A stretch of DNA of 64,000 bases from Hyalangium ruber (GTDB taxonomy: Bacteria > Myxococcota > Myxococcia > Myxococcales > Myxococcaceae). A program made the position numbers and the translations under genes. Location of the stretch: contig NZ_JAXIVS010000013.1 of NCBI RefSeq assembly GCF_034259325.1, positions 1-64,000 on the forward strand. Direction: 5' to 3'. Below are positions 4,167-51,499 of this stretch, one piece after another (within the stretch, counting starts at the first letter, position 1; every line of letters begins with the position of its first letter). The notes beneath the pieces are model-generated. The model had not been told where the DNA came from. It did not search any database and saw only the letters and a program-made list of their open reading frames with translations.

Positions 4167-4928
4167 ATGCCTGCCACGCAGAGGAACCAAATCGGTATGA
4201 TCGTCTATGCGCCCGCGCTCGTGGGGGATGATAGCCGCACCTTGGCTGTAGTTCGTGGGATGGAGCGCGCACGGCCTGGCTTGCGCATCGGGTTGATGAT
4301 TTCCGATGAGGGGCAACTTATCCGGTTGCCGGATCGCGATGCCTTCGTCGCCCGAGAGGGCCGTCGTGGGGAAATGCCGCCGCTGCGCAGTACCGATGAT
4401 AACTTCCGAGTGAGCGTAACGGGATGGGGAATTCCGGCGGGGCTTTGCCCTGGCGGCCGGGCTCAGTTTGAATTCCATGTGGCGCTGCCGCTGTCCGCTG
4501 AAGGCAGCGCTGCCGCGGAGGTTTTGCTGGAAGCCGTAGGGGAGAATGGAAGCGCGTTCTGGGGGCACGCGACGCCGGTCAGCGCGGCTGTGGACATCGC
4601 ACGCCAGACGAAGAATCTACCGGACGATTTAGAGCCGCCTCCCCGCAGGCTGCCTGTAATCAAGTCCCCGAGTGCCATGCGTTCGCCGGAGATTCCCTAT
4701 TACCTTGGGTGGCTGAACTACTGGTCTGCCGCTGCCGCACGAGCCATCGGGTTCCCGGATCCTGCTCGCGACGCTGAGCTGCTCTCGCGGGCGCGGCGCA
4801 CGGAATCGGGCGGGTGGGTGGTGCAGCTCACCGATGCGCCGCTCGACCTCGACAACCCCGCCCACCTGGACGCGCTGAAGCGGACCTACGAGCGCTTCCC
4901 GGAGATCGGCGGGCGCGCGGTACGGTAA
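4167..4928 (+). CDS. DUF5953-like protein, probable partner/immunity of the DUF6310 protein
   Basis: The 253-residue protein begins one base after the stop of the DUF6310-like gene (ATG at 4167); the longer open frame starting at 4047 overlaps that gene and is not needed. It matches the family that habitually follows DUF6310 genes in myxobacteria: an IVYAPALVGDDSR start, VVRGMERARPGLR, SDEGQLI, and a very conserved C-terminal half with LGWLNYWSAAAARAIGF and GGWVVQLTDAPLDLDNP. No signal peptide is visible, so it is probably cytoplasmic. A role as immunity protein is inferred from the fixed gene pairing. Unlike its partner it looks intact. Confidence 0.65.
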   Translation: MPATQRNQIGMIVYAPALVGDDSRTLAVVRGMERARPGLRIGLMISDEGQLIRLPDRDAFVAREGRRGEMPPLRSTDDNFRVSVTGWGIPAGLCPGGRAQFEFHVALPLSAEGSAAAEVLLEAVGENGSAFWGHATPVSAAVDIARQTKNLPDDLEPPPRRLPVIKSPSAMRSPEIPYYLGWLNYWSAAAARAIGFPDPARDAELLSRARRTESGGWVVQLTDAPLDLDNPAHLDALKRTYERFPEIGGRAVR

Positions 4929-6056: not shown

Positions 6057-6084
6057 GCGGCGGGTTCGATTCCCGCCGCCTCCA
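6057..6084 (+). repeat. tmRNA (ssrA) 3'-end-like fragment, copy 1
   Basis: The sequence can form a T-arm (CGGG TTCGATT CCCG) followed directly by CGCCTCCA, which looks like the 3' acceptor strand and discriminator base of a tmRNA or tRNA. No matching D-arm, anticodon arm or 5' acceptor strand is present upstream. Similarity to the copy near 49.4 kb may extend weakly to about 6035. It is read as a leftover att-type fragment rather than a working RNA gene. Confidence 0.6.
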
Positions 6085-6093
6085 TGCAGCACG

Positions 6094-6135
6094 AAACCCC
6101 GTGGCGCCAGCAAGGTGCCACGGGGTTTTCTTTTC
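6094..6135 (+). terminator. Rho-independent terminator
   Basis: An 11-base perfect stem (AACCCCGTGGC at 6095-6105 pairing with GCCACGGGGTT at 6117-6127) is followed by a T-rich TTCTTTT run. It lies ten bases after the tmRNA-like fragment on the same strand, where a terminator of an RNA gene would be expected. Confidence 0.75.
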
Positions 6136-6140
6136 ATCCG

Positions 6141-6201
6141 AGACCGCCTCTCGCCGCGTGTCGGGGCTGAGGTGGGCGTAGCGCTCGGTGGCGTGCCCCA
6201 G
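6141..6201 (-). pseudogene. Remnant of a tyrosine recombinase (integrase) C-terminus
   Basis: On the minus strand one frame reads LGHATERYAHLSPDTRREAV. This matches the end of XerC/D-type phage integrases, where LGHA...RYAHLSP contains the last conserved residues including the tyrosine. About five residues that normally separate LGHAT from RYAHLSP are missing, and everything upstream is replaced by unrelated sequence. It sits next to the tmRNA-like fragment, where integrase genes of ssrA-targeting elements usually end. Confidence 0.6.
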
Positions 6202-6241
6202 CGCTCACCGCTTGAGCCAGTAGGAAGGACGACGGGTGAGC

Positions 6242-6420
6242 AAGGCCGCCATTGCAGTGCAGATAGAAAGCCCGCAGATCGGGATCCAGTCGCCAGCCCA
6301 CGCGTTGCTCGAACTCAGCGATCTCGGCAGCCGTTGCGGGCGGATACGGGAAGTGCTCGCGTGAAACTTCCTCAAGCAGTTGGGACTCCGGGGCAGAGCT
6401 TTCCCAAGGAGAAGGCAGAC
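6242..6420 (-). pseudogene. Remnant of a SUKH/SMI1-KNR4 family protein
   Basis: The minus strand encodes a segment with AEIAEFEQRVGWRLDPDLRA and FYLHCNGGL, the characteristic first half of SMI1/KNR4 (SUKH) domains. SUKH proteins are common immunity proteins of polymorphic toxin systems. The match stops at about 6242, where sequence leading into the integrase remnant begins, so the C-terminal half is missing. Upstream of about 6420 no start and no homology is evident. Judged to be non-functional. Confidence 0.55.
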
Positions 6421-6536
6421 GTTTATGACACAGTAGTAGTAGTAGAAGCTTGTCGGAGAATCGGCCAGGAGTATCTTCCTTGTACAGGTAGCCCGAGTCC
6501 GCGCTCAGCTGCTCGGGCAATACTGTACACAAGAGA

Positions 6537-7106
6537 CTACCGACTGATGGTAGCGCCCACCGTGCCTCCACACTCCGCAGAGGTGTAGCAGCCAGCATGC
6601 AGTTTGTACGTCCCGGCCGCGGGGGCCCTGTAGGCAATCTTCGAGCCATAGCCGCCGCAGGCGTCATCGCTGTATGCCACCCGCAGGCCACTTGGGCCAT
6701 AGAGTCGCAAGAAAGTGTCATCATAAGGGGATCTCCTGGTTGAGGCCCCCGACACGCCGCAAGTGCCCACCGTAAGAAGCTGACCGGCTTGGAGGGAGAA
6801 GGACCAATTCTTCGTGTTCTGCAACGCATTGTTGGTGTTAGTGGTAGTGTAGCTGTACACGGCGGAGAGGGGCCTGACGTCACTGGCATGGAGCATATCC
6901 CCCAGGTCGATCACCTCCTCGTCCGGAGTGGGCGACACGGACTCAATCGGCAGAGCCTCTCCCGTATCCTGCGGCTTGGCCTCCCTCGCGTCTGGATCGG
7001 TGGTCTCAGGCGCCTCGGGCTTCATGTCTTCTGGGGCAGGGCCGCACCCAGCGACAAGGATGACTCCGAGGACGAACAAGCACGCGCGGTTGAGTCCAGT
7101 TTTCAT
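6537..7106 (-). CDS. Lipoprotein with a PPC-like beta domain
   Basis: The 189-residue protein starts with a signal peptide and lipobox (ILVAGC) and has AGGAAAC seven bases before its ATG. An acidic, Pro-rich linker (residues 22-75) leads to a C-terminal domain with WSFSLQAGQLLTVGTCG, YDDTFLRLYGPSG and YKLHAGCYTSAECGG. This pattern is typical of pre-peptidase C-terminal (PPC) domains found in secreted myxobacterial proteins. Four or more cysteines could form disulfides. No catalytic domain is present. Confidence 0.65.
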   Translation of the reverse strand: MKTGLNRACLFVLGVILVAGCGPAPEDMKPEAPETTDPDAREAKPQDTGEALPIESVSPTPDEEVIDLGDMLHASDVRPLSAVYSYTTTNTNNALQNTKNWSFSLQAGQLLTVGTCGVSGASTRRSPYDDTFLRLYGPSGLRVAYSDDACGGYGSKIAYRAPAAGTYKLHAGCYTSAECGGTVGATISR

Positions 7107-7246
7107 GAATGTTTCCTTTGAGAGAGGGGCGTGAACTGGTGTTGGGGTTGTTGTCCAGTTCGTAGCGGAATCTCGTACCCGGTCCGCACACCAGCCAGCC
7201 GCCCAGAAAGGCAGTCTTTTGTGTTATACTGGGCTTTCCTGAATGC

Positions 7247-7402
7247 TTGATCGATGATGGCATCGTTCTCGACATGCGCCCCATGAAGGGCGCCCGGGTC
7301 GATCCCGTCTGCCGCGTGGTGCGCGCCCAGGCCGGTCTCACCTGGGGTGAGTTGGCGGAGAGGGTGGAGAAGCCATTGACCGGACTTCCGAGGCGTATAG
7401 AC
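7247..7402 (+). pseudogene. Remnant of a FAD-binding (PCMH-type) oxidoreductase
   Basis: One frame reads DDGIVLDMRPMKGARVDP followed by RVVRAQAGLTWGEL. This is the highly conserved FAD-binding block of BBE/FAD_binding_4 oxidases, usually in the middle of a protein of about 450 residues. Similarity ends abruptly near 7350 and a stop occurs at about 7402. Nothing upstream or downstream continues the protein, so it is a gene fragment. Confidence 0.6.
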
Positions 7403-7770
7403 AGGATAGGAGTATAGGCAGGATAGAGGCGATGTGGAGGGTGAGGGCAGGAGCGGAGGTGACGTGAAGGGCCGCTGACTGGGGTCGCCCGAGCAGTGAG
7501 CCAAGCGGGTTGACAGGCCGCGCAGCCCCTTGGAGTACACGCCGGCCCTGGCTGCCCTCCTATGAGGTGCGCGGCAGGGGCTTGGCTCTCCTGGCCCTGG
7601 CAGCTTGAGCCTCAACAGCACGCGGCCTGAGGGGGCCCGCGCGCCGGGGCTCGCCTCGCACCTGCCGTGGGCAAGCCCAAGTGCTCCAGTATCGCTCGCA
7701 CTCCCCTGCCTGCCTTCACGTACGCCAAGACCCGCCGCCTGCCTCCACACCTCACGCAGGCGAACACGTC

Positions 7771-8022
7771 GGCGGAATTGGCAGCGCGGCGCCATCGTTG
7801 CGGCTCCAGCTCAGCCCCGGGGGCACACCAGGACAGCAGCCATCGCCGCGCTCAGCTCGGGCAGCGCTTTTCAGAACGGCGCTTTCAGAACGGCGGCGGA
7901 ATTGGCAGCGCGGCGCCTTTCAGAACGGCGCCGCGAATGGCGGCGCGGCGCCATGGTTGGCGCTCCGGCCCGGCCCGGTGGCGCTCCGGGGCAGCGGCCA
8001 TCGCTGCGCCCAGCTCGCGGGA
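7771..8022 (+). repeat. Imperfect direct repeat of about 95-130 bp
   Basis: Two copies begin with GGCGGAATTGGCAGCGCGGC (7771 and 7893). Both continue with related stretches ending in CAGC(A/G)GCCATCGC(C/T)GCGC and (C/T)CAGCTCG. The second copy carries an extra block of about 35 bases rich in TTTCAGAACGGCG motifs, also present just before it. Long open frames cross the region in several phases, but none looks like a protein. The origin is unknown. Confidence 0.5.
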
Positions 8023-8043
8023 AGGCCGGAAGGCCGTACGCCG

Positions 8044-8247
8044 ATGATGAACGGGCAGAGGAGGTCGGACAGGCTCGTAGTACCGACGAAGCTGCCGAAC
8101 AAGGCCAGCGGTACGGCTGCGGAGGTGGTGGAGGGAAGGAGCCTGGCCAAAGAGAAGGTGGGAGAGCAAAACACGCCCCGGACCCAGCACCGGACACAGC
8201 GTGCCCAGTGCGCTCGCCTGCCTACGCGACGCAGCAGTGCGCTTTGA
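8044..8247 (+). pseudogene. Group II intron reverse transcriptase (LtrA-like), N-terminal remnant
   Basis: From the ATG pair at 8044/8047 the frame reads RRSDRLVVPTKLPNKA, then EVVEGRSLAKEK, then QNTPRTQ. This is the recognisable beginning of group II intron-encoded reverse transcriptase/maturases (R-S-D-x-x-VVP-x-K-x-PNK, VEGR-x-x-K, T-x-RTQ). After about 8205 the match jumps frame (SVPSALACLR) and then stops. The reverse transcriptase, maturase and endonuclease domains are absent, and the intron 3' domains follow almost directly. Confidence 0.65.
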
Positions 8248-8350
8248 CGTCAGCATCCGAGGCAAGAGCCCAGTGCGGTAACTCTGCTCGCTGGGATCTG
8301 TGCGGGGGGCGGCCCGAGCCTGTACGGCGAAGGGCCGTCCCTACCGCGAC
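8236..8350 (+). ncRNA. Group II intron 3' end (domains V and VI), remnant
   Basis: The stretch AGAGCCCAGTGCGGTAAC...CTGGGATCT (8265-8298) folds as a domain V-like hairpin. It is followed by TGTGCGGGGGGC and a second hairpin (GGCGGCCC / GGGCCGTCC) ending in CTACCGCGAC, as expected for domain VI and the 3' splice junction near 8350. I recall very similar 3' ends in many bacterial group II introns. Because most of the intron ORF is deleted, it could move only if helped by another intron's protein. Confidence 0.55.
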
Positions 8351-8363
8351 CGAGGAAACAGGG

Positions 8364-8780
8364 ATGAACACGCCCGCGCACCAAGACGCCCCCACGATGT
8401 TCTACCCGCTGAACCCCTGCGGCCATCTTCGCGGCCCCGAGGGCGGCTGCATCGGCTTTCCAGAGTGCAAGCGCGAGCCTGTGAGCGCCGACAAGATGGG
8501 GCCGCTCGTGCAGCGAGCTGGCGAACTCCGCGCGCGGCTCTTGGACCATCCTTCCCTGGCGTTCACGCGAGAGGGCCGCGCCGCCGTTGCGGACAAGCTG
8601 GGAGCGGCGGTGACTGTGGCCGAGTGCCTTAACGTGGTGCTGATCAGCCAGCTCGACGACAGGGCCGCCATGACGACGGAGGAACAAGCGACGCTGGCCA
8701 CCATCGGCGCGAACGTGGAGATGCGGGTGCGGGATCTCCGCGAACTCTTCACGGCATGGACTGCAGCGGGCCAATCCTGA
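8364..8780 (+). CDS. Small hypothetical protein with N-terminal cysteines
   Basis: The 138-residue protein starts at the ATG at 8364; the open frame continues upstream to 7605 but only through repeat and intron sequence, so the longer version is rejected. The N-terminus has CGHLRGPEGGCIGFPEC, a spacing that could bind zinc or form disulfides. The rest is a predicted helical domain (LRARLLDHPSLAFTREGR, EMRVRDLRELFTAW). No signal peptide and no recognised family. It follows the intron remnant by about 14 bases and is followed by a tmRNA-like fragment on the same strand. Confidence 0.5.
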   Translation: MNTPAHQDAPTMFYPLNPCGHLRGPEGGCIGFPECKREPVSADKMGPLVQRAGELRARLLDHPSLAFTREGRAAVADKLGAAVTVAECLNVVLISQLDDRAAMTTEEQATLATIGANVEMRVRDLRELFTAWTAAGQS

Positions 8781-8914
8781 AGCCCGGGGGAGCACCCGCT
8801 GTGCGGTCGGGTCCTCCGTCATGTTGCACGTATGTCGCAGGAACGTGCGGAATGGGCTGGAACAGGACGGGACGAGACGGGACGCGGCGGGATATCGACT
8901 CCCAAGCATGCTGG

Positions 8915-8990
8915 GCGGTTACGAGGTAAGGACGCGATTCTGCTAGGAGTTTCGCACCGCCCGGCGCGGGTTCGATTCCCGCCGCCTCCA
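8915..8990 (+). repeat. tmRNA (ssrA) 3'-end-like fragment, copy 2
   Basis: The last 25 bases are identical to copy 1 over the T-arm and acceptor strand (GGGTTCGATTCCCGCC then GCCTCCA). Upstream, the segment GAGGTAAGGACGCGATTCTG...GCTAGGAGTTTCGC aligns with copy 4 near 49.4 kb for roughly another 50 bases, so the shared block is about 75 bases. The 5' part of a tmRNA is absent. Sequence after the discriminator A differs between all copies. Confidence 0.6.
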
Positions 8991-9095
8991 CAGAGCAGCG
9001 AGAGTTGTAGCAATGCTCTGGCCGCCATCAGGCGAGCCGGGGTTTTCTTTTTCCCCTGAAGCCGCCAGAGGCAGCCAGGCGGATGAGACCGGGAC

Positions 9096-11043: not shown

Positions 11044-11206
11044 GGGGAGGGCTCCTGGGGTCGATCCGACAAGAGCCCCGGCGGCTCCAGCGGTGTCTGG
11101 TCAGAGAACCCCCCAGCCCCGCCGAGGTTAATTCGCCCTCCGCGCGGTGGCCTCCAACGTGCCGGGGCGAGGGCGATTCACCCGACTTGCTGGGTACTCA
11201 AACGAT

Positions 11207-48314: not shown

Positions 48315-48405
48315 CCCGCCCGATCACCAGCGCCTTGGTCGCGGCCACCCAGGCCGGTCCACAAGCCCCACCGCACCCTTCGCCGCTGCCAGTACCCTTT
48401 TGGAG

Positions 48406-48460
48406 TGGAGGCGGCGGGAATCGGACCCGCGGCGAGGGGCGAGGCGGCAACCTGCTCGCG
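48406..48460 (-). repeat. tmRNA (ssrA) 3'-end-like fragment, copy 3
   Basis: On the minus strand the end reads CGCGGGTCCGATTCCCGC then CGCCTCCA, the T-arm and acceptor block of the other copies with one loop change (TTCG to TCCG). It lies directly after the stop of the alpha/beta hydrolase on the same strand. Weaker similarity (TTGCCGCCTCGCCCCTCGCC) precedes it. No 5' half of an RNA gene is present. Confidence 0.5.
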
Positions 48461-49393
48461 TCAGGTGCTCGCGAGCGCCCCCTCGATTGCCTCGAAGACG
48501 AGTGTCGGCGCATCGATCCAGGGCGCGTGCCCGGCATCTGGAATCCGTACCATGCGCACCCGGGGGTTACTGGCCGCGACCGCCTCGCCCTCTTCGGGCG
48601 CTCCCCACGCGTCCTTCTCGCCCCACACGAAGGTCGTCGGCACCGACAGGTCCTTCCAGCGCGCAGAGAGCAGCAACTCCTTCTTCATCCCGAACACGTC
48701 GAAGGCCCGGTCGATCAGCGTGAACCAGCTCGCGGCATTGCGGAGCTGGCTCGCGGTCAGGGCATCGAGGAACTCGTCCTCCAGCCGTTCCGGATGCGCC
48801 ACGAGGAGTTGCTTCCAGAAGGCACGGCTGCTGTCGCGCGTGGGCCGCCGCATCATCGAGCGCACGAGCGCCTTGAGCCCCGGCAGCGTGCCCAGCCGCA
48901 TCTGCAAGGGTAGGGCGCGCGTGATCCCTGCTGGAGCCGCGACGAGCACCAGCCGAATCATCCGTTCCGGATGAGTCAGCGCGAAGTCGACAGCCCAGAG
49001 ACCTCCCATGGAGCACGCCACGATCGGCACGCTCGGGAGGCCCTCGGCGTCGAGGATGTCGCCGAGGAAGCGCCGCGAGTGCGCCAGCAGATCCACGCCG
49101 CGATAGTCGAATGGATCCGCCAGGCCGTGTCCGGGCCTGTCCACCGCCATCACGCGGTACTTCCGCGCGAGCGATGGCAGGAGGGGGCCCCACTGGAGCG
49201 CCTCACCCAGGCCGCCGTGGAGCAGTAGCAGCGGGGGGCCATCACCCAGCTCGATCGCCTGCGTCGAGCCTCCTGACCAGCGCACCCGGCGCGTGCGGTG
49301 TCCCGGGGCGCAGCGGTTGAGATAGGCAGCCTGGGCGGACTCGAGAGCACGGTCGAGTCCGCCAGCAGAATCGAGGAGGGGCGTGTTCTCCAT
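48461..49393 (-). CDS. Alpha/beta hydrolase
   Basis: The 310-residue protein has the alpha/beta hydrolase landmarks: LLLLHGGLGEALQWGPLL (oxyanion HG), VDRPGHG, VACSMGGLWAV (nucleophile Ser in S-M-G-G), FVWGEKDAWGAP (acid Asp) and DAGHAPWIDAP (catalytic His). There is no signal peptide. The substrate is not predictable. The ATG at 49393 is about 23 bases after a tmRNA-like fragment and the stop is directly before another, so the gene is framed by the two repeats. Confidence 0.88.
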   Translation of the reverse strand: MENTPLLDSAGGLDRALESAQAAYLNRCAPGHRTRRVRWSGGSTQAIELGDGPPLLLLHGGLGEALQWGPLLPSLARKYRVMAVDRPGHGLADPFDYRGVDLLAHSRRFLGDILDAEGLPSVPIVACSMGGLWAVDFALTHPERMIRLVLVAAPAGITRALPLQMRLGTLPGLKALVRSMMRRPTRDSSRAFWKQLLVAHPERLEDEFLDALTASQLRNAASWFTLIDRAFDVFGMKKELLLSARWKDLSVPTTFVWGEKDAWGAPEEGEAVAASNPRVRMVRIPDAGHAPWIDAPTLVFEAIEGALAST

Positions 49394-49415
49394 CCTGGGA
49401 GCTTACCGTCTTGAA

Positions 49416-49495
49416 TGGAGGCAGCGGGAATCGAAGCCGCAGCTCGGCGAGAGCAAAACCCCAAGCAGGTCGCGCTGTTACCGGCTAACGCGACG
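49416..49495 (-). repeat. tmRNA (ssrA) 3'-end-like fragment, copy 4
   Basis: On the minus strand this reads CCGGTAACAGCGCGACCTGC, then TTGGGGTTTTGCTC and CGGCTTCGATTCCCGCTG-CCTCCA. It aligns with copy 2 (8.9 kb) for about 75 bases with roughly 70 per cent identity by eye. The T-stem keeps pairing except for two changes. It directly follows the cupin gene stop on the same strand. Confidence 0.55.
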
Positions 49496-49503
49496 AATTG
49501 GGG

Positions 49504-49854
49504 CTAGCGCACATCACCTGGGGGATGCTCCTTGAACCACTGGGCAATGCCCTCCATCTCGGGCTCGAAGACGCCCGGGGTGAAGTTGAGCATCCCTGCG
49601 CGCTGCTGGCTCCGGTTCTGGAAATCGTGGGTCACCCCTCCTGGCACGAGCACGAATGAGCCGGGGGACGCATCGATCCACTTCTTTCCGACCAGGATGC
49701 TCATCGTGCCTGCGATGATGAAGAACACATCATCCTCCGGGTGCGAGTGCGCACCAGGGCCCCTGGTGTTCGGCTCAAGCCACCATTCGGAGATGGAGTA
49801 GGCCCGCGCCGTCTCGTCGCAGTCAGCCTTGAACACGGCGTTGATCCTTCCCAT
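49504..49854 (-). CDS. Small cupin-domain protein
   Basis: The protein has a single cupin barrel: GAHSHPEDDVFFIIAGTMSI (motif 1 with His, His, Glu-type ligands), KKWIDASPGSFVLVPGGVTH (motif 2) and DFQNRS. Homologues I recall begin about 17 residues earlier with MRRxEPVL. Here the same residues are encoded (RRIEPVLTPGGG), but the codon at the expected start (49905) is GTC, not GTG or ATG, although TGGAG lies five bases upstream. The ATG at 49854 is therefore given as the conservative start. An in-frame ATG at 49998 inside the upstream gene is the alternative. Confidence 0.65.
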   Translation of the reverse strand: MGRINAVFKADCDETARAYSISEWWLEPNTRGPGAHSHPEDDVFFIIAGTMSILVGKKWIDASPGSFVLVPGGVTHDFQNRSQQRAGMLNFTPGVFEPEMEGIAQWFKEHPPGDVR

Positions 49855-49936
49855 CGGATACTGACGCCCCCCACCAGGGGTGAGAACGGGCTCAATCCTT
49901 CTGACGCCGGCTCCACACCCTCCTGTGAGAGTTGAA

Positions 49937-51499
49937 CTACGCGGCGGCGTCCAGTTCCTCGAAGACGGAGAGGATCTCACGAGAGATGCCCCCGTCATCC
50001 ATCTGCTGCTCCGCGTCTAGCCCATAGCGCCGCGCGAGGTACTCCGTATAAGCGCAGGCGAAGAACTCATCCTCGTTCTGCTTCTGGTACTCGGAGCCGA
50101 TATAGCCGGCGAGTGACGCACGTCGGAGCAGCGTCTGGATGCGGGCTCGGAGTGGGGCGGGCCCGGAGAAGTACACCAGATGGGCAAATTCGTGGGCGAG
50201 CACCCACCCGTGCGCCCCTGGCGCGAGGCTCAGCAGTCCCTCGATCTTCGCGATGGCCATGCTTCCCACGGCCACACCGTGAAGGGCCTCGAAGGCTCGG
50301 TGATCGTCTTCCGCGCGCTCGTCTCGCCACTCCGCGAGCTCGGGCAGGTCCGAGGCGCGTACATCCAGTGGGAGGATCCGGACGTGATAGCCCGCTTGGG
50401 CCAGATGCGGGAGGAACTGGCGCAGCGGGAACGCCGATGCATGCACAACGCGGCGCTCGCGATCCGTCAGTGCCGACCAGTCCGGGAATACGCGTTCGAG
50501 CCCCTCCAGAGGACTCACTTCCGGTAAGCGCTTCAATGCCCCGAGGACATCCTGCTGCTCGAGCTCTAGCGCCGCCCCTTTTCCCAGCAGTGGCGCGAAG
50601 TCCTCCGGAGATAGCTCGTTTGCACGTTCGAAGTGCTTCAAGGCATTCCGAAATCGGCCCTCGCGCAGGGCGATCACGCCTTGCTGGACGTGGCCGATGC
50701 TGTCCGAGGTGTCGCTCCGCAGTCGCTCATCCGCGAGCTTCCGCAGTGCCTGCAGGGGGCGCAGCGCGAGGCTTGGAGCACGACACGGTGCCCCCAGCAT
50801 CTGGTGTGCCGCGAGCAGCGTGAAGTTCACGCCTGCGCGTGTGTCCAGCTTCCGCCGTCGGGCCGCATCTACCACCACCGCTTCATGGCCATGCATGGTG
50901 GCAAGGACTTCCGTATGGAGCGCCTCGAGTTCCGCGTACTCATCGCCCGACGGGCCGGAGGCGAAGGGGTCGCTGCGTGAGAGCTGTTCGTAGAGAGCCA
51001 TGGCGCGTTCCAGTGGCGACAGCGCCTCCTGCATACGTCCCTGGGCGAAGCGGGCTTTTCCGAGTAGACACAGGAGACGCGGCTCTGCTGACTGCTCCGC
51101 GGGAGCGAGGAGCGTCTCCGCCTCTGCGGCAGAGTCGACCTCGATGAGCTGATCGGCCAGGGCCGCGATCACATCAATGCGGCGTGGGTAGCGAGCGTAC
51201 AGCGCTCGCAACCGCTCAATCGAGGAGTGCGGTCGGCCAGCGCGGGTGTCCAGCCAAGCCAGCATCCATGTCGCGTCGTCATGCTGGGGTGAGCGCGCCA
51301 GGGCCTGCTCGAGCAGCTCGCGTGCGATGGCTGGCTGGTCCTCGGCACAGGACTGAGCGAGGTCGACCAGGGCGTTGACCCGGAGTTGCTCGCCCGAGTT
51401 GGCGACCAGCGCGAGCACCTCGTTCAGCTTCCCTGCGCTCAGCAGCCGCCGCACCTTGCGCGCGAGGCGCCAGGAGTGCAGCGAATCACCCAATCCCAT
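49937..51499 (-). CDS. TPR protein with C-terminal HExxH metallopeptidase-like domain
   Basis: The 520-residue protein has helical TPR-like repeats in the first 330 residues (ARELLEQALARSPQHDDATW, LLGKARFAQGRMQEALSPLE, GRFRNALKHFERANELSPED). The C-terminal domain contains GWVLAHEFAHLVYF, a zincin HExxH motif, and a downstream NEDEFFACAYTEYL whose Glu could be the third zinc ligand. There is no signal peptide or membrane segment. The layout resembles putative zinc metallopeptidases of unknown role in myxobacteria. Its start has GGGGAGG-like sequence upstream. Confidence 0.7.
   Translation of the reverse strand: MGLGDSLHSWRLARKVRRLLSAGKLNEVLALVANSGEQLRVNALVDLAQSCAEDQPAIARELLEQALARSPQHDDATWMLAWLDTRAGRPHSSIERLRALYARYPRRIDVIAALADQLIEVDSAAEAETLLAPAEQSAEPRLLCLLGKARFAQGRMQEALSPLERAMALYEQLSRSDPFASGPSGDEYAELEALHTEVLATMHGHEAVVVDAARRRKLDTRAGVNFTLLAAHQMLGAPCRAPSLALRPLQALRKLADERLRSDTSDSIGHVQQGVIALREGRFRNALKHFERANELSPEDFAPLLGKGAALELEQQDVLGALKRLPEVSPLEGLERVFPDWSALTDRERRVVHASAFPLRQFLPHLAQAGYHVRILPLDVRASDLPELAEWRDERAEDDHRAFEALHGVAVGSMAIAKIEGLLSLAPGAHGWVLAHEFAHLVYFSGPAPLRARIQTLLRRASLAGYIGSEYQKQNEDEFFACAYTEYLARRYGLDAEQQMDDGGISREILSVFEELDAAA

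What the first reader, a model, noticed from the sequence alone, without database searches (positions are those of the whole stretch)
48406..49998. Two consecutive genes each followed by a tmRNA-3'-end-like element (cassette-like layout)
On the minus strand the cupin gene ends at 49504 and is followed within about ten bases by a tmRNA-3'-like block (49495-49416). The hydrolase gene starts 23 bases later, ends at 48461 and is again followed at once by the same kind of block (48460-48406). Gene plus recombination-site-like element in one orientation is how integron cassettes look, but these elements resemble the T-arm and acceptor end of tmRNA. Known biology: ssrA is a frequent target of tyrosine integrases. 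Inference: small single-gene units may have accumulated by serial site-specific integration.
Basis: partly seen in the sequence, partly recalled or inferred. Interest (0 to 1): 0.62.

Follow-up and report, generated by a model that had tools for sequence, protein, structure and literature searches.

The report
Scattered tmRNA-tail attachment sites in myxobacteria
The two repeats are copies of the 3' end of the tmRNA gene that serve as landing sites for a family of integrase-driven mobile elements and their integrase-less passengers; in this myxobacterial family the sites have escaped the tmRNA gene and lie in dozens of places, often as head-to-tail arrays of small gene units, of which the reported pair is a worn example.

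Summary
Both blocks match the genome's own ssrA 3' end (21/24 and 23/24 to the family core; best of 40 shuffles 20, typical 17). They belong to a genome-wide family: about 48 non-ssrA copies here, 19-40 in most Archangium, Hyalangium and allied genomes, about 1-19 in Myxococcus/Corallococcus and mostly one elsewhere. Neighbouring copies cluster head to tail (15 pairs within 5 kb, all same orientation; about 1 expected), bounding units of 1-18 kb. Copies sit between recurrent left arms (about 110-170 nt, with GGGACGAGAC repeats) and right arms; several right arms lead into a convergent tyrosine integrase. In some Myxococcus, Corallococcus and Hyalangium the same integrase family sits directly after an intact ssrA, and across genera ssrA is conserved up to the core, then switches to unrelated sequence. 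So these are att sites of ssrA-targeting integrative elements plus integrase-less satellites (some with SitA toxins), dispersed away from ssrA. The focal unit is weak: one 53-nt left-arm stub, no right arms or integrase, and relatives carry hydrolase or cupin alone without cores. Serial integration is supported for the system, not shown for the hydrolase. Closest known: Dehalococcoides ssrA islands (serine recombinase, confined near ssrA).

The parts
49415..49438 (-). att core 1: copy of the ssrA 3' end (T-arm plus acceptor 3' strand), 21/24 to the family core
49439..49491 (-). truncated left arm of type A (53 nt of a ~150-nt arm; 89-97% to other copies in this genome)
48461..49393 (-). alpha/beta-hydrolase gene (Abhydrolase_1), 310 aa, between the two cores; patchy accessory gene (own genome and 2 of 91 relatives at E<=1e-60)
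48405..48428 (-). att core 2: ssrA 3' end copy, 23/24; no recognisable left or right arm
49504..49998 (-). cupin gene upstream of core 1 (homology to Hyalangium starts at 49888, so the true start is probably downstream of 49998)
6062..6085 (+). third att core of the window, 23/24, followed by an ssrA-terminator-like right arm
6086..8991 (+). 2.9-kb unit between cores (second core included), no integrase gene recognised
8818..8967 (+). full left arm of type B (about 150 nt), 92.6% to the type-B reference
8968..8991 (+). fourth att core of the window, 24/24, followed by right arm R4
4224..4919 (+). DUF5953 gene 1.1 kb before core 6062; DUF5953 genes are enriched near cores (6 of 15 within 3 kb)

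Best explanation
The two blocks are att cores: 24-bp copies of the ssrA 3' end at which a tyrosine integrase (395-407 aa) exchanges strands, probably inside the T-loop TTCGATT (inferred). Autonomous elements carry the integrase at one end (core - right arm - integrase, convergent) and a long left arm at the other. Integrase-less units share the same arms and are presumably moved in trans. Repeated integration into resident cores builds head-to-tail arrays. In Archangiaceae the elements also entered many non-ssrA sites, whose chromosomal half-site resembles the inverted core half (GGCGGC before GGG). The focal hydrolase lies between two worn cores of such a site. Shown: cores, arms, arrays, integrase linkage, ssrA targeting in relatives. 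Inferred: crossover point, mobilisation in trans, secondary-site entry, and that the focal unit ever moved.
For: Core family and counts (backwards-read control 0 in 145 genomes). Clustering and orientation: 15 of 15 neighbour pairs within 5 kb point the same way, 1.06 pairs expected. Recurrent left arms A, B, C, D and right arms R1-R4; the type-B arm plus core recurs as a sharply bounded ~172-nt block in five Archangium genomes. Integrase genes 0.1-0.2 kb from cores at C1, C3, C6, C15, C16. Same integrase family directly after an intact tmRNA gene in Myxococcus (L113, L120, L125), and in Hyalangium G079 and Myxococcus G118; a three-core array at the real ssrA of Corallococcus interemptor L117. 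ssrA upstream 150 nt 94-98% identical within genera, downstream 120 nt 55-66% (shuffled 51-55%), the switch falling at the core end. Ectopic integrases fall into two lineages, both with ssrA- or tRNA-linked members. Half-site GGC before GGG at 60% of sites without a classified arm versus 0-10% at arms A, B and D.
Against: No clean filled-versus-empty pair was found at an ectopic site: array flanks are conserved on one side only or lie at synteny breaks. The focal unit has no right arm, one 53-nt left-arm stub, no nearby integrase, and core-free homologues of its genes. The ~48 count comes from a 43-contig draft. 'Integrase-less' rests on Pfam misses; the 424-aa protein at C22 could be an unrecognised recombinase.
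Confidence: 0.82

Rival explanations
1. The focal hydrolase is a bystander: the chromosome carried cupin and hydrolase as ordinary accessory genes, and cores 1 and 2 are leftovers of separate integrations and excisions on either side, so no hydrolase cassette ever existed. (This concerns the focal unit only and is compatible with the best explanation of the cores.)
For: Hydrolase and cupin homologues lie in core-free and mutually different contexts in Archangium and Hyalangium; core 2 lacks both arms, and only about 21 nt and 32 nt separate the gene from the cores.
Against: Two same-strand cores 1 kb apart, snug around one gene, match the array spacing seen elsewhere in the genome.
Confidence: 0.5
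2. An integron-like cassette system: single genes with a site are captured at ssrA-like sites by a dedicated integron integrase.
For: Same-orientation arrays of 1-3 kb units, many without integrase; layout resemblance.
Against: The integrase scores 58-61 bits against the NCBIfam integron-integrase model, cut-off 265, and is flanked by a convergent att arm as in genomic islands; relatives integrate at ssrA and tRNA genes; ORFs point both ways; no single attI platform, as integrases lie at several arrays.
Confidence: 0.08
3. A non-autonomous repeat that spreads by transposition and happens to carry a tmRNA end.
For: Dozens of dispersed copies; left arms about 150 nt with sharp outer edges.
Against: Arms on the two sides vary independently around an invariant core, as in site-specific recombination, and integrases are linked; no terminal inverted repeat or target duplication was noted, though not tested systematically.
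Confidence: 0.06

Closest known systems
Dehalococcoides ssrA genomic islands (McMurdie et al. 2011, PMC3146451)
   Same: Tandem islands bounded by direct repeats of the ssrA 3' end; many (15 there) without an integration module, read as cis-mobilizable elements.
   Different: There a serine recombinase (DsiB) and all repeats within 100 kb downstream of ssrA; here a tyrosine integrase and about 48 copies scattered over the genome, with the own ssrA unoccupied.
tRNA/tmRNA-gene genomic islands with tyrosine integrases (Islander type, PMC4383910)
   Same: Core equal to the 3' end of the target gene, integrase at one end, intact target restored in some relatives.
   Different: Most sites in this clade are not at the target gene.
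CIME/IME accretion arrays (review PMC5704250)
   Same: Integrase-less units that keep att sites, in tandem with integrase-bearing ones.
   Different: Usually few units at one gene; here many loci and 1-3 kb units.
SGI1 secondary attachment site (PMC2297512)
   Same: An island with a primary site, a secondary site and tandem copies.
   Different: Per its title and the review, one secondary site is described, not tens; the full paper was not read.
SitA toxin loci of myxobacteria (PMC5562445)
   Same: SitA5-family genes occur in two core-bounded units here; that paper already notes sitA next to mobile elements.
   Different: That paper's main text does not mention tmRNA, att sites or integrases; most SitA5 genes here are not near cores (3 of 42 within 3 kb).

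Membership tests
tDNA (ssrA)-targeting integrative elements | att core identical or nearly so to the 3' end of the target gene | tested here: met
   21-24 of 24 to the host ssrA-derived core at the window's four sites
tDNA (ssrA)-targeting integrative elements | tyrosine integrase gene at one end of the element | tested here: met
   met at C1, C3, C6, C15 and C16 arrays; not at the focal pair
tDNA (ssrA)-targeting integrative elements | intact target gene beside one att site | tested here: inconclusive
   met in Myxococcus, Corallococcus and Hyalangium relatives; not met at the ectopic sites, the focal one included
tDNA (ssrA)-targeting integrative elements | filled and empty sites differing exactly at the core | tested here: inconclusive
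   sequence after ssrA switches at the core end within four genera; no exact pair at ectopic sites
cis-mobilizable elements (CIME) in tandem | att sites kept, no integrase, next to other units | tested here: met
   many core-bounded units without a recognised integrase; movement itself not tested
Integron gene cassettes | IntI-type integrase | tested here: not met
   58-61 bits against TIGR02249, cut-off 265
Integron gene cassettes | attC sites recombined as folded single strands | not testable with these tools
   arms A and B hold an inverted repeat, but RNAalifold did not choose it
Dehalococcoides-type ssrA islands | serine recombinase and location within 100 kb of ssrA | tested here: not met
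   tyrosine integrase; copies on many contigs

The most novel reading that the evidence does not exclude
Archangiaceae run a genome-wide cassette network: resident ssrA-type integrases move integrase-less 1-3 kb gene units in trans among tens of ectopic ssrA-tail sites, reshuffling accessory genes, including toxin and immunity genes, much as integrons do but with unrelated parts.
Probability: 0.3. Interest if true: 0.75.

Novelty: new variant of a known kind. Interest (0 to 1): 0.55.

Why it matters
Islands at ssrA normally stay at ssrA. A clade in which a tDNA-specific integrase system has spread to 20-48 sites and carries many integrase-less units gives a natural test of how site specificity relaxes and how small accessory genes come and go in large social-bacterial genomes. 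The swap of the sequence right after ssrA between congeneric species also shows a widely conserved RNA gene whose 3' flank, in several cases a likely terminator, is replaced together with the element.

Tried and rejected
Full tmRNA or tRNA gene at the blocks: none. Empty-site search with flanks of own arrays in six Hyalangium genomes and of one Archangium array in five others: one-sided or broken synteny, no clean pair. The composite query held only part of the flanks; segments were traced back. RNA structure of the left arms: an inverted repeat (CAAGGCG/CGCCTTG in A, CCGGGCGGT/ACCGCCCGG in B) is visible by eye, but RNAalifold chose another fold and I did not test it formally. Type-C left arm as an independent repeat: its outer part also occurs without a core in places, yet it ends a unit at the real ssrA of Hyalangium G083, so I read it as an element arm. 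SitA5 enrichment near cores: weak (3 of 42, P about 0.06). No paper found that describes the dispersal; subscription papers are mostly absent from that library. Structure prediction was not used.

Full report
Check of the observation. The finding's coordinates are correct. On the minus strand the cupin ORF stops at 49504, the core GGCTTCGATTCCCGCTGCCTCCAT occupies 49438-49415, the hydrolase ORF runs 49393-48461, and the core GGGTCCGATTCCCGCCGCCTCCAC occupies 48428-48405. The ssrA gene of the same genome lies on another contig (G000:C6:560311-560672) and ends in GGGTTCGATTCCCGCCGCCTCCAA. In 40 Markov shuffles of the window the best match to the core was 20 of 24 and the mean best 17; the window has hits of 21, 23, 23 and 24. 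The blocks are T-arm and acceptor strand only, not tmRNA genes.

A genome-wide family. BLASTN with the first block and a tmRNA covariance search find about 48 non-ssrA copies in this 10.8-Mb, 43-contig genome. A core pattern with one mismatch counts 45 here, 28-40 in Archangium (g3), 28-31 in three of four g7 genomes, 19-38 in Hyalangium (g8), 1-10 in g6 (Corallococcus), roughly 1-19 in g19 (Myxococcus), and mostly 0 or 1 in other genera of the order; the same pattern read backwards gives 0 in all 145 genomes. Genus names rest on named records with matching contigs and on general knowledge. Copies cluster: 15 neighbour pairs within 5 kb against 1.06 expected from random placement (maximum 5 in 2000 draws), all 15 in the same orientation.

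Anatomy. Upstream of the core stand recurrent left arms: A and B (about 150-170 nt, with GGGACGAGAC-like direct repeats, 65-72% alike), C (about 45-60 nt) and D (about 127 nt). Downstream stand recurrent right arms R1-R4. R1 reads as a terminator hairpin and, with R2, is followed by a convergent tyrosine integrase gene of 395-407 aa (PF00589 plus an N-terminal SAM-like domain) at C1, C3, C6 and C16, and by a fragment at C15. The type-B arm plus core recurs as a sharply bounded block in Archangium (query 7055-7227). Units between cores are 1-18 kb. The large integrase units carry DUF2381 and protein-kinase genes. Small units carry, among others, SitA5-family toxin lipoproteins (C3:577162-580034 and C18:10735-13049), DUF5953-DUF6310 pairs, an Imm11 protein and a DUF4265 protein. 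Six of 15 DUF5953 genes lie within 3 kb of a core, 0.31 expected (P about 4e-7); SitA5 genes are not clearly enriched.

Targeting of ssrA in relatives. Of 53 related integrase loci, several Myxococcus loci (L113, L120, L125) have an intact tmRNA gene ending directly in the core and right arm next to the integrase; Corallococcus interemptor L117 has three cores in tandem starting at the real ssrA, all with the CCCTCC variant of that genus's ssrA; other members lie beside tRNA genes. Among 28 further ssrA loci, Hyalangium G079 and Myxococcus G118 have a full integrase right after ssrA, and G083 has a 1.4-kb core-to-core unit ending in a type-C arm at ssrA. Within four genera the 150 nt before the core are 94-98% identical on average and the core invariant, while the 120 nt after it are 55-66% identical (shuffled 51-55%). 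The types after ssrA include the right-arm types seen at ectopic cores. This is the comparative signature of repeated site-specific exchange at the ssrA end, though it is not a filled-versus-empty pair for one defined element.

Dispersal. In Archangium, Hyalangium and this genome most cores next to integrases are not preceded by ssrA, and the own ssrA has only one core in 20 kb and an ssrA-type terminator like that of some Myxococcus. A quick tree puts ectopic integrases in two lineages, each with ssrA- or tRNA-linked relatives, so dispersal follows the host family more than one integrase lineage (SH-aLRT support only). At sites without a classified arm the nine bases before GGG match the inverted right half (GGAGGCGGC) at 5.4 positions on average against 2.9 expected, with GGC before GGG at 60% versus 0-10% for arms A, B and D; ssrA itself has GGACGC (that class also holds some ssrA and distal sites). 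I take this as a sign of secondary-site integration, an inference.

The focal unit. Core 1 keeps 53 nt of a type-A left arm; core 2 has no recognisable arm; neither has a known right arm. No integrase was found in the window (one search lists the nearest on this contig at 211697). The upstream TPR gene is in a conserved neighbourhood in Archangium (about 10 kb or more shared between species), while the cupin occurs in five Hyalangium genomes and the hydrolase in two Archangium genomes, each with homology confined to about the gene, in contexts that differ even between congeners. No core-like site lies within 1 kb of the gene in those genomes; the nearest is about 1.1 kb from the cupin in G081. 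Only this genome and two of 91 sampled relatives carry a close hydrolase. The genes are thus accessory and itinerant, but nothing shows that these cores moved them. The idea therefore survives without being proved here.

Known systems. Dehalococcoides ssrA islands are the closest: tandem, ssrA-repeat-bounded, many without integration genes, but with a serine recombinase and within 100 kb of ssrA. CIME accretion is the general model. Integron membership fails on the integrase. I found no description of ectopic dispersal of ssrA att sites in myxobacteria in the searched library. Overall: a new variant of a known kind, with the focal pair a weak representative.

Noticed in passing
window 6062-8991: A second, better preserved core-bounded unit in the same window: cores 23/24 and 24/24, full type-B left arm, ssrA-terminator-like right arm at the first core.
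   Followed up: yes
window 4224-4919: DUF5953 gene close to a core; this family is enriched near cores genome-wide (6 of 15 within 3 kb).
   Followed up: yes
L105:11188-11508: A related integrase in Corallococcus lies next to what looks like a tRNA 3' end joined to a type-A-like left arm, suggesting that left arms are shared between ssrA- and tRNA-targeting elements.
   Followed up: no
L133 and L135 (MAGs, one labelled Patescibacteria), near 11190 and 11149: Distant relatives of the integrase next to an ssrA-like core without a tmRNA gene found; the taxonomic label may reflect binning error.
   Followed up: no
left arms A and B, e.g. window 8902-8967: Inverted repeat next to the core whose sequence differs between arm types while staying complementary; role unknown and not formally tested.
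   Followed up: partly
L042:11203-12474: 424-aa protein at the right end of the 17.6-kb C22 unit, no Pfam or NCBIfam match; possible unrecognised recombinase.
   Followed up: partly
cupin loci L159-L163: The cupin gene is 82-92% identical to the window's copy in five Hyalangium genomes, yet in the pairs compared only about 400-560 bp are shared and the neighbourhood differs.
   Followed up: partly
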